Shown: piece after piece, positions 52,820 to 60,367 of the stretch
Layout: each line of letters begins with the position of its first letter
Numbering within the stretch: position 1 is the first letter of the stretch
Origin: Pseudanabaena mucicola str. Chao 1806
GTDB lineage: Bacteria; Cyanobacteriota; Cyanobacteriia; Pseudanabaenales; Pseudanabaenaceae
Length of the DNA: 64,000 nt
Direction of reading: 5' to 3'
Assembly (NCBI RefSeq): GCF_030323025.1
Contig: NZ_CP097329.1
Coordinates: 1,023,001-1,087,000 of the forward strand
The notes under the pieces: generated by a model
Seen by the model: the letters and a program-made list of their open reading frames with translations, nothing else
What the model was told of the DNA's origin: nothing
Databases searched by the model: none
Made by a program: the position numbers and the translations under genes

Positions 52820-52990
52820 TTATATGCCTGTTAAGTCTATGGTTTCAGCAATAGAATTTTCCTCTTCAGGTAAACCAATAAAGCGGTTGATTTCATTTAC
52901 ATCGGCATCTATTGCTTCTGCATTCCGATACAAGATTTTTGCTATCTCTTTGGTGCAGGTTTCAAGTCTTTCTATTTCTTCTGGTGTCAT
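52820..52990 (-). CDS. Possible 56-residue acidic protein
   Basis: A short minus-strand frame: MTPEEIERLETCTKEIAKIL, then YRNAEAIDADVNEINRFIGL and PEEENSIAETIDLTGI. It is rich in Glu and helical in character. The longer plus-strand frame here looks like its shadow. No clear ribosome site is seen upstream. The EEIERLE...EIAKILY pattern resembles the N-terminus of some cyanobacterial transposases, so it may be a relic. A stem between TGATGCACC and AATGCATCG (52791-52820) follows its stop codon. Confidence 0.4.
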   Translation of the reverse strand: MTPEEIERLETCTKEIAKILYRNAEAIDADVNEINRFIGLPEEENSIAETIDLTGI

Positions 52991-53056
52991 TTGCTTGGTC
53001 TGGTTAACTTTTTTCTATTTTACCTCTCATTTCTCTTAAGTATTTATACTCAGCGC

Positions 53057-53479
53057 TTAATTGAGGTGCTCCCTATAATATTCGCCTACGACCCTAACAC
53101 CAGACTTTGCATACTGAACAAATTGATACTCCCTAGACCATTGCGGTGTCTTAAATAAGTTAGACAGAAAGAATTTATAATTAACTTGTGTAGAGCTTAT
53201 TCGATTACAGACAGCATGAGTAATAGCCATAGGACTTACGCAAACCGAACGAATTTATTAGGATTGAGGTAGATGTGGTGCGGGCTTTGCCCGCACCACA
53301 TCTACCTCAATACGTAAGTCCTAAGCCATTGAGGTTTTGGTGTATTGAAAAAGCGGAAATAGACAACTTCCCAACCAAACAATTAGCCATAGAATAAAAC
53401 CTTTTAATTGTCTATTCTCTTTAGATGAAGTGAATATTTCTGAACTTGTTTGACGAGTTATTTTCTGAATTGTGTTCAT
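53057..53479 (-). pseudogene. Small membrane-protein gene interrupted by a 94-bp MITE
   Basis: The 5' part (53479-53324) reads MNTIQKITRQTSSEIF..., LKGFILWLIVWLGSCLFPLF, TKTSMA, then meets a stop codon in the element. The 3' part (53224-53057) reads ITHAVCNRISSTQVNYKF..., YAKSGVRVVGEYYREHLN and stop. Removing the element with one 5-bp target copy rejoins the two in frame, giving a 107-residue protein with one membrane helix. The family is not recognised. A truncated 52-residue product could still be made. Confidence 0.75.
53230..53323. mobile_element. 94-bp MITE, copy 1 (family R3), target duplication AGCCA
   Basis: TAGGACTTACG at the left and CGTAAGTCCTA at the right. The inner stem is GGTAGATGTGGTGCGGGC with its complement. 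AGCCA flanks both ends (53225-53229 and 53324-53328). Further copies at 56040 and 60275. Confidence 0.92.
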
Positions 53480-53934: not shown

Positions 53935-53971
53935 AAAAAAAGAGAGTTCGCTATGCGAACTCTCTTTTTTT
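53935..53971 (+). terminator. Rho-independent terminator of psaK
   Basis: AAAAAAAGAGAGTTCGC pairs with GCGAACTCTCTTTTTTT around TAT, with T7 on the plus-strand side. It also serves the convergent nitroreductase gene, whose stop is 5 bp away. Confidence 0.95.
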
Positions 53972-54980: not shown

Positions 54981-55065
54981 AATATAAAAACCGAGGAGTT
55001 TGTTCCGCCCTCGTAGCGGGCGGAACAAACTCTGGTTTTAGGTTTTAATTAAGTTGAGCTACTTA
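54981..55065. mobile_element. Truncated 104-bp hairpin element, copy 5 (family R2)
   Basis: The core stem GTTTGTTCCGCCC and the right end AATTAAGTTGAGCTACTTA are intact; the first 20 or so bases of the left end have been replaced. Confidence 0.8.
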
Positions 55066-55072
55066 AAAAACG

Positions 55073-56034
55073 ATGAATATCCGCAAAGAATTGCTAGATG
55101 AACTGCTGCAAGAATGTAAAACACCACCTGACTTATTCGGAGAAGGAGGAATTCTGAAGCAACTAACGACCGCATTGGTAGAACGAGCCTTAGAAGCAGA
55201 ACTATCAACGCATCTGGGGTACAAAAAGCATGAATCCAGACCATAAGGACAAACCAACAGTCGCAACGGCTATAGCCAGAAAAAGCTCCAAGGCGACTTT
55301 GGCATAGCTGAAATTGCAGTCCCCCGAGATCGTCAAGGCGAGTTTGAACCACAGATGGTAAAGAAAGTACAAAGCCGCTTGTCAGGACTAGACGAAAAGA
55401 TCATCGCCTTGTATGCTCATTGTGTTTCTGGACTGTCTAGTCATCTAAGCCCGAGCCAATGGTCGAGTGATTAACAAATCGCTGTACTTTGCATTGGCAG
55501 TAAACATAGACGGGTACAAGGAATTGCTGGGTATGTGGATTTCCCCTGATGAGGGTGCAAAATTCTGGTTGTCAGTTCTCACCGAAATTCACAACCGTGG
55601 AGTCCATATGGTGCGTAACTCGGTCGCTTTTGTGACATGGCAACAACGCAAGTAAGTTTGTGCTGATCTCAAGGCAATTTATGCTGCTGCGACCGAATCA
55701 GAAGCGGAGTTTAATCTCGAACTCTTTGCTGAAAAATGGGACAAACAATATCCGTCGATCTCTAAGTCTTGGCGCAGTCATTGGGCGAACATTATCCCTT
55801 TCTTTGCTTTCCCGTCCGAGATTCGTAGGGCGATTTATACCACTAAGGCGATTGAGTTGATGAATAGCAGTTTGCGGAAAGTGATTAAATCTCAGCAGAT
55901 TTTTCCTTCTGATGAGGCTGCTTTCAAATTAGTTTACTTGGCTTTGCGGAATATCTCCAAGAAGTAAACGAGGCTCTATTCGTGATTGGGAACCTGCTCT
56001 TAATCGATTTGCCATCCTCTTTGAGGATCGTCTC
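55073..56034 (+). pseudogene. IS256-family transposase, decayed
   Basis: Starts MNIRKELLDELLQECKTPPD and runs to a stop near 55242, then continues [31 protein letters not shown] and [19 protein letters not shown] deletion joins this to [20 protein letters not shown], and TEIHNRGV is joined directly to HMVRNSVAFVTWQQRK, so the part with the second catalytic Asp region (DGLKGF) is missing. After further stops the end reads FPSDEAAFKLVYLALRNISK and RDWEPALNRFAILFEDRL. Several disabling changes, so inactive. The 3' end is hit by an R3 MITE. Confidence 0.9.
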
Positions 56035-56039
56035 TATAT

Positions 56040-56132
56040 TAGGACTTACGCATTGGGTAGATGTGGTGCGGGCTTCGCCCGCACCACATCTACCTCAATC
56101 CTAAGAAATTCGTTCGGTTTGCGTAAGTCCTA
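56040..56132. mobile_element. 93-bp MITE, copy 2 (family R3), target duplication TATAT
   Basis: TAGGACTTACGCA at the left and TGCGTAAGTCCTA at the right; TATAT lies at both flanks (56035-56039 and 56133-56137). Inserted at the end of the IS256 remnant. Confidence 0.92.
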
Positions 56133-60274: not shown

Positions 60275-60367
60275 TAGGACTTACGCATTGGATAGATGTG
60301 GTGCAGGCTTCGCCCGCACCACATCTATCCAATGCGTAATAAATTCGTTCGGTTTGCGTAAGTCCTA
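60275..60367. mobile_element. 93-bp MITE, copy 3 (family R3), target duplication AAGCA
   Basis: TAGGACTTACGCA at the left and TGCGTAAGTCCTA at the right; AAGCA at both flanks. It has landed at the end of the R1 half copy. Confidence 0.92.

What the first reader, a model, noticed from the sequence alone, without database searches (positions are those of the whole stretch)
53057..53479. Small gene broken by a MITE, with frame restored on excision
Removing the 94-bp element plus one AGCCA copy joins 52 and 55 codons into one 107-residue frame with a membrane helix. The frame continuity is independent evidence that the gene was real. Precise excision would switch the gene back on.
Basis: seen in the sequence. 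Interest (0 to 1): 0.62.

Follow-up and report, generated by a model that had tools for sequence, protein, structure and literature searches.

The report
Dead membrane-protein gene carrying a MITE
A small mobile DNA element really does sit inside a gene in this cyanobacterium, but the gene was also cut by another mobile element and lost most of its middle, so removing the small element would not bring it back; this looks like ordinary gene decay, not a switch.

Summary
A 94-bp MITE lies at 53230-53323 between AGCCA copies; dropping it plus one AGCCA leaves a 107-codon minus-strand frame. The MITE family is real: 33 of 42 sampled copies have exact 5-bp target duplications, against 9 of 1722 cross-copy pairs.

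The joined frame is not a small gene but the first ~102 codons of a ~290-residue cyanobacterial membrane-protein gene; the profile supports the join (21.2 bits; halves 9.8 and 7.4; best of 500 shuffles 9.7). Its last five residues and stop come from the left end of an ISKra4-family IS remnant (about 52901-53073), which runs into the gene's last ~25 codons (52820 to about 52900). About 165 middle residues are missing. MITE plus duplication is 99 nt (3x33), so it never shifted the frame; it only adds stops.

Excision therefore cannot restore the gene. A conspecific genome carries the same arrangement; of 10 other MITE sites sought there, 9 were found, all filled. No parent IS was identified. Most likely an IS insertion and a deletion killed the gene and the MITE landed later. 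Ordinary decay, low interest.

The parts
53324..53479 (-). First 52 codons of a ~290-codon membrane-protein gene (with the predicted membrane helix); 53324-53328 is one copy of the duplication AGCCA
   Evidence: the joined frame aligns with residues 1 to ~101 of the ~290-aa homologues
53230..53323 (.). 94-bp MITE, ends TAGGACTTACG / CGTAAGTCCTA, inner inverted repeat with 23-bp arms at 53263-53311
   Evidence: consensus of the sampled copies is 93 bp
53225..53229 (.). AGCCA, 5-bp target site duplication (other copy 53324-53328)
53074..53229 (-). Codons ~53 to 102 of the same gene, up to the IS insertion point; a cysteine present in 20 of 20 distinct aligned homologues is tyrosine here
   Evidence: cysteine read by eye
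52901..53073 (-). Left-end remnant (about 173 bp of ~1.2 kb; inner boundary approximate) of an ISKra4-family insertion sequence; supplies the last five residues (REHLN) and the stop (53057-53059) of the 107-residue frame
   Evidence: at least seven further copies in the own genome (87-92% identity) and copies in related genomes (down to 84%); a full-length copy in locus L018 encodes an ISKra4 transposase piece (244 bits, cut-off 205), its reading frame split in two
52820..52900 (-). Last ~25 codons of the same gene (NEINRFIGLPEEEN...), in frame with the IS transposase start as a 56-codon chimeric ORF (52820-52990)
   Evidence: chimeric ORF 14.3 bits to the family profile; homologues end N-x-x-N-R-F-x-x-L-P-E-E-E-D-P-V-V-K

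Best explanation
This is the wreck of a ~290-codon gene for a membrane-anchored protein of unknown function, found in part of Pseudanabaena and, distantly, in other cyanobacteria. An ISKra4-family insertion sequence entered after about codon 102. A deletion running from inside that IS into the gene then removed about 1 kb of IS and about 165 codons, leaving about 173 bp of IS welded to the last ~25 codons. A 94-bp MITE, with a 5-bp duplication, sits after codon 52; its own first codon in this frame is a stop. The MITE is probably the later event, so it landed in a gene that was already dead. Shown: the pieces, their order and strand, the repeat families, the duplication, homology at both ends, and the same arrangement in a conspecific genome. 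Inferred: a single deletion, the order of events, and the lack of function.
For: Joined frame 21.2 bits and chimeric tail ORF 14.3 bits to the same family profile; halves 9.8 and 7.4; best of 500 shuffles 9.7. Both ends lie on one strand in the right order. Homologues are 289-297 aa in the three genomes first hit, and four named Pseudanabaena records carry them. Window 52888-53073 is a multicopy IS end; a full-length copy in L018 encodes an ISKra4 transposase piece above the curated cut-off. In L018 the same IS also sits just before a lone gene tail of this family, with no N-terminal piece found in that locus. Invariant family residues kept: 16 of 33 in the N piece and 9 of 15 in the tail (13 of 30 for the N piece in the realignment). 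The second cysteine, present in 20 of 20 distinct aligned homologues, is lost (read). The profile finds no family member in the own genome at E <= 0.001. Order: the IS remnant has 7 private substitutions in 173 bp (19 other copies), the MITE none in 94 bp (41 other copies).
Against: The same profile search did not find the own-genome pieces themselves, and identity to the nearest homologues is only 24-32%, so subfamily divergence and decay cannot be separated cleanly. Of 14 distant members, 13 keep only 5-14 of 27-30 invariant residues (one keeps 21 of 30), so the low retention here is not proof of decay. Apart from MITE and IS, the N piece has no stop or frameshift. The order of events is weak: Fisher p 0.054 when a junction column is counted as an eighth IS difference, and the comparison sets differ in size. 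The three relatives closest in this region have no gene between these neighbours, so the undamaged gene at this site has not been seen.
Confidence: 0.9

Rival explanations
1. Reversible switch, as first read: the 107-residue frame is a working small membrane protein, and precise excision of the MITE turns it back on.
For: The joined frame is open and homologous across the junction; the membrane helix is in the kept part (low-confidence model of a homologue).
Against: The frame ends in an IS end; the related genes are ~290 aa; a cysteine shared by 20 of 20 homologues is lost; the conspecific genome has the same filled state; 9 of 10 other sites were found there, all filled. No parent IS was identified, but the search for one was partial.
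Confidence: 0.02
2. The MITE came first and inactivated a complete gene; the IS insertion and deletion followed in the dead gene.
For: The MITE's in-frame stop would kill the gene on its own; the N piece has no other stop or frameshift.
Against: 0 private changes in the MITE copy against 7 in the IS remnant; weak statistics.
Confidence: 0.2
3. The open frame and the protein similarity are chance, and this is plain intergenic DNA with a MITE.
For: Each half alone scores about as the best shuffle (9.8 and 7.4 against 9.7); 17 of 2000 shuffles reach as long an open stretch; the profile does not find the pieces in the whole-genome search.
Against: Joined score 21.2 bits against 9.7 for the best of 500 shuffles, plus an independent match of the tail on the same strand beyond the IS.
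Confidence: 0.03

Closest known systems
Bacterial MITEs as gene-inactivating insertions (reviewed in PMC10969869; passages seen, among them MITE inactivation of mcy genes in two Anabaena strains)
   Same: Short, non-coding, terminal inverted repeats, fixed-length target duplication, high copy number, insertion into a reading frame
   Different: Here the target gene is also broken by an IS and a deletion, so the MITE is not the sole or clearly the first lesion; parent IS not identified
ISKra4-family insertion sequences (NCBIfam NF033572)
   Same: A full-length copy in L018 encodes a transposase piece above the curated cut-off; its left end matches window 52901-53073
   Different: The window holds only about 173 bp of about 1.2 kb
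Unnamed ~290-aa cyanobacterial membrane-protein family (two members tested; no Pfam, NCBIfam or PHROGs match reached a cut-off)
   Same: N-terminal ~102 and C-terminal ~25 residues, in order, on one strand
   Different: Middle ~165 residues absent; second conserved cysteine replaced by tyrosine

Membership tests
MITE | Terminal inverted repeats | tested here: met
   TAGGACTTACG / CGTAAGTCCTA at the two ends
MITE | Many copies, too short to encode a transposase | tested here: met
   239 exact end 11-mers against 5 for the control pattern; element is 94 bp
MITE | Target site duplication of fixed length | tested here: met
   Exact 5 bp in 33 of 42 sampled copies, one mismatch in 3 more; 9 of 1722 cross-copy pairs
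MITE | Related autonomous IS with the same ends | tested here: inconclusive
   Not found, from capped lists: 20 loci taken at seemingly unpaired ends in the own genome gave none. ISAs1 copies in G024 with these ends outside proved to be nested in MITE-like elements
Reversible MITE switch | Excision restores a complete gene | tested here: not met
   Middle ~165 residues missing; frame ends in IS sequence
Reversible MITE switch | Both states seen | tested here: not met
   One conspecific genome compared: same filled state, two bases different in 1201. No reads of a culture were available
ISKra4-family IS remnant | Transposase of the family in full-length copies | tested here: met
   244 bits against cut-off 205 for a 275-aa ORF of L018; an interrupted 176-aa ORF in L039 scores 84.7, below the cut-off
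~290-aa cyanobacterial membrane-protein family | Profile match at both ends | tested here: met
   21.2 and 14.3 bits in a small search; not found by the whole-genome search at E <= 0.001
~290-aa cyanobacterial membrane-protein family | Two conserved cysteines (C-x-R...V-x-C) | tested here: not met
   Second cysteine is tyrosine; present in 20 of 20 distinct aligned homologues (read). Counted as a gene remnant, not a working member

The most novel reading that the evidence does not exclude
The truncated gene had become a small membrane protein of its own (107 residues, stop supplied by an IS end), and the MITE, whose 99-nt footprint keeps the frame, toggles it through rare precise excision in part of the population.
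Probability: 0.015. Interest if true: 0.55.

Novelty: new member of a known kind. Interest (0 to 1): 0.13.

Why it matters
It is a worked warning: a frame that closes neatly when a MITE is removed need not be a whole gene. Looking at what supplies the stop codon, and at the length of relatives, turns an apparent switch into the visible end of a longer decay. The MITE family itself (5-bp duplications; 239 exact ends in this genome, so perhaps a hundred copies counting variants) is a fair case for tracing a parent transposase.

Tried and rejected
Parent of the MITE: I first took a 1464-1466-bp ISAs1-family element in G024 as the parent, because its outer ends match and two of the three first fetched have 5-bp duplications, and only fragments of that transposase were found in the own and conspecific genomes. 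My second notebook entry still says so; the third corrects it. Rejected: 17 copies share different ends (CAGGGTGG...), and the 5 of 17 with MITE-type ends are insertions nested inside MITE-like elements. So the lack of an ISAs1 transposase says nothing about this MITE's mobility. An IS982 transposase next to a MITE end in L134 was also rejected, because that end belongs to a hairpin element beside it.

Function of the ~290-aa family: two members tested, no family-library match reaching a cut-off (NCBIfam gave one weak hit of 11.7 bits). The joined frame gave one weak Pfam hit (14 bits, cut-off 27), taken as chance. The structure model is weak (mean pLDDT 61.8) and no PDB match reached E 0.001.

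Literature: the MITE end sequence was not found in the held papers (11-mer: 0 papers; 10-mers: 25 papers, 20 listed, none cyanobacterial by title). One search (MITE, cyanobacteria, Pseudanabaena) listed 12 papers, none on this by title. The listing and passages of PMC3281130 gave no direct-repeat length for ISAs1; on precise excision was seen as a listing only.

Rows dropped: one locus (L100) was dropped as a duplicate of a window copy; a 73%-identical copy listed was not counted; the sampled copies are the best-scoring ones (40 of 188 candidates were scored). In the cysteine count, L047 (same sequence as a row already counted) and L066 (same as L048) were left out as duplicates and L049 because it does not cover the site.

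Full report
What was claimed.

The observation. It is exact. One search places AGCCA at 53225-53229 and 53324-53328 around a 94-bp element (53230-53323) with perfect 11-bp ends, and joining the flanks gives a 107-residue minus-strand frame. The element is one of many: its 11-bp end occurs 119 and 120 times on the two strands of the 4.53-Mb genome, the reversed control pattern 2 and 3 times. Of 43 copies compared (40 fetched, three in the window), one was a duplicate. Of the 42 left, 33 have exact 5-bp duplications and 3 more have one mismatch; in the control, 9 of 1722 left-right pairs from different copies match. These are the best-scoring copies, not all. The consensus is 93 bp; the window copy has one extra base. 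Element plus duplication is therefore 99 nt, 33 codons, so it never shifted the frame. In the gene's direction its first codon is TAG.

The organism. Contigs of three genomes of the same genus (G013, G019, G024) have the same lengths as named Pseudanabaena records, so the genus is inferred to be Pseudanabaena.

What gene was broken. Besides its own locus, the joined protein matches frames of 294-305 codons in three of 58 genomes, and the predicted proteins there are 289-297 residues. A profile of five of these scores the joined frame at 21.2 bits; the halves score 9.8 and 7.4, and the best of 500 shuffles 9.7, so the join is supported by homology. In 58 genomes the profile matches in 20, among them 10 of the 25 genus members G000-G024, some only in part; the own genome has no match at that threshold, which also means that its pieces are too short or too diverged to be found that way. 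Named carriers are Pseudanabaena sp. UBA1465, P. cinerea FACHB-1277, P. biceps O153 and a Pseudanabaena MAG. For the two members tested no curated family match reached a cut-off. A weak model (mean pLDDT 61.8) shows a helix at residues 23-54, a beta domain, a long helix region and a second beta domain.

The frame is not a whole gene. Homology ends near residue 92-95. Window 52888-53073 is a multicopy repeat with tip GGGAGCA(C/T)CTCAATTA at 53073. A full-length copy in L018, about 1.2 kb and bounded by that sequence and its reverse complement, encodes an ISKra4-family transposase, there split over two frames. Thus the last five residues and the stop of the 107-residue frame are IS sequence. Beyond about 173 bp of IS, the ORF at 52820-52990 changes from the IS transposase start into NEINRFIGLPEEEN, the C-terminal end of the same ~290-aa family (14.3 bits). 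Both ends of one gene thus flank an IS stump, and about 165 residues are missing. A related genome (G011, L018) also has a lone tail of this family beside a full-length copy of the same IS.

Signs of decay and order. The N piece keeps 16 of 33 family-invariant residues and the tail 9 of 15; a realignment gives 13 of 30 for the N piece. The second of two cysteines, present in 20 of 20 distinct aligned homologues, is tyrosine (read). Against this, 13 of 14 distant members keep only 5-14 of 27-30 invariant residues, so divergence alone could explain the low retention. The IS remnant carries 7 private substitutions in 173 bp (19 other copies), the MITE none in 94 bp (41 other copies). This suggests that the IS and deletion came first, but Fisher p is 0.054 even with a junction column counted as an eighth difference, and the comparison sets differ in size.

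Is there a switch? Removing the MITE leaves a gene without its middle. A conspecific draft genome has the same arrangement, two bases different in 1201. Ten other MITE sites of the own genome were sought there with joined flanks: 9 were found, all filled, and one was not found among the 40 of 216 candidates that were scored; 29 further sites prepared were not tested. The three relatives closest in this region (97-98% identity beside psaK) have no gene between these neighbours, so no undamaged state is known here. The parent IS was not identified; an ISAs1 candidate proved to be nested in MITE-like elements.

Verdict. The sequence observation is right and the MITE is real, but the switch reading is not supported. 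The best account is a decaying gene with three lesions: an ISKra4-family insertion, a deletion across IS and gene, and a MITE. It is ordinary, with low interest.

Noticed in passing
L161-L163, L181-L194 (genomes G024 and G021): A 1282-1296-bp ISAs1-family IS shows 19-bp direct repeats in 16 of 17 copies, each beginning C and ending G; by eye about half of the targets are palindromes, and 5 of 17 copies lie between MITE-type ends. From memory, the family usually has shorter repeats; a hairpin-seeking IS may deserve its own look.
   Followed up: partly
window 56040-56132 and 60275-60367: Two further copies of the same MITE, with 5-bp duplications; the first lies just beyond broken IS256-type transposase pieces.
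   Followed up: partly
window 55073-55967: Broken pieces that by eye resemble the IS256-family (Mutator-type) transposase ORF of L039.
   Followed up: no
L082 right flank; about 30 places listed in G058: Another short hairpin repeat (about 90 bp), present in about 30 listed places in the conspecific genome.
   Followed up: no
L151 against window 53952-53954 and 55011-55015: Clustered differences between the two conspecific genomes; the first (TAT against ATA) looks like an inverted hairpin loop, the second is unclear.
   Followed up: no
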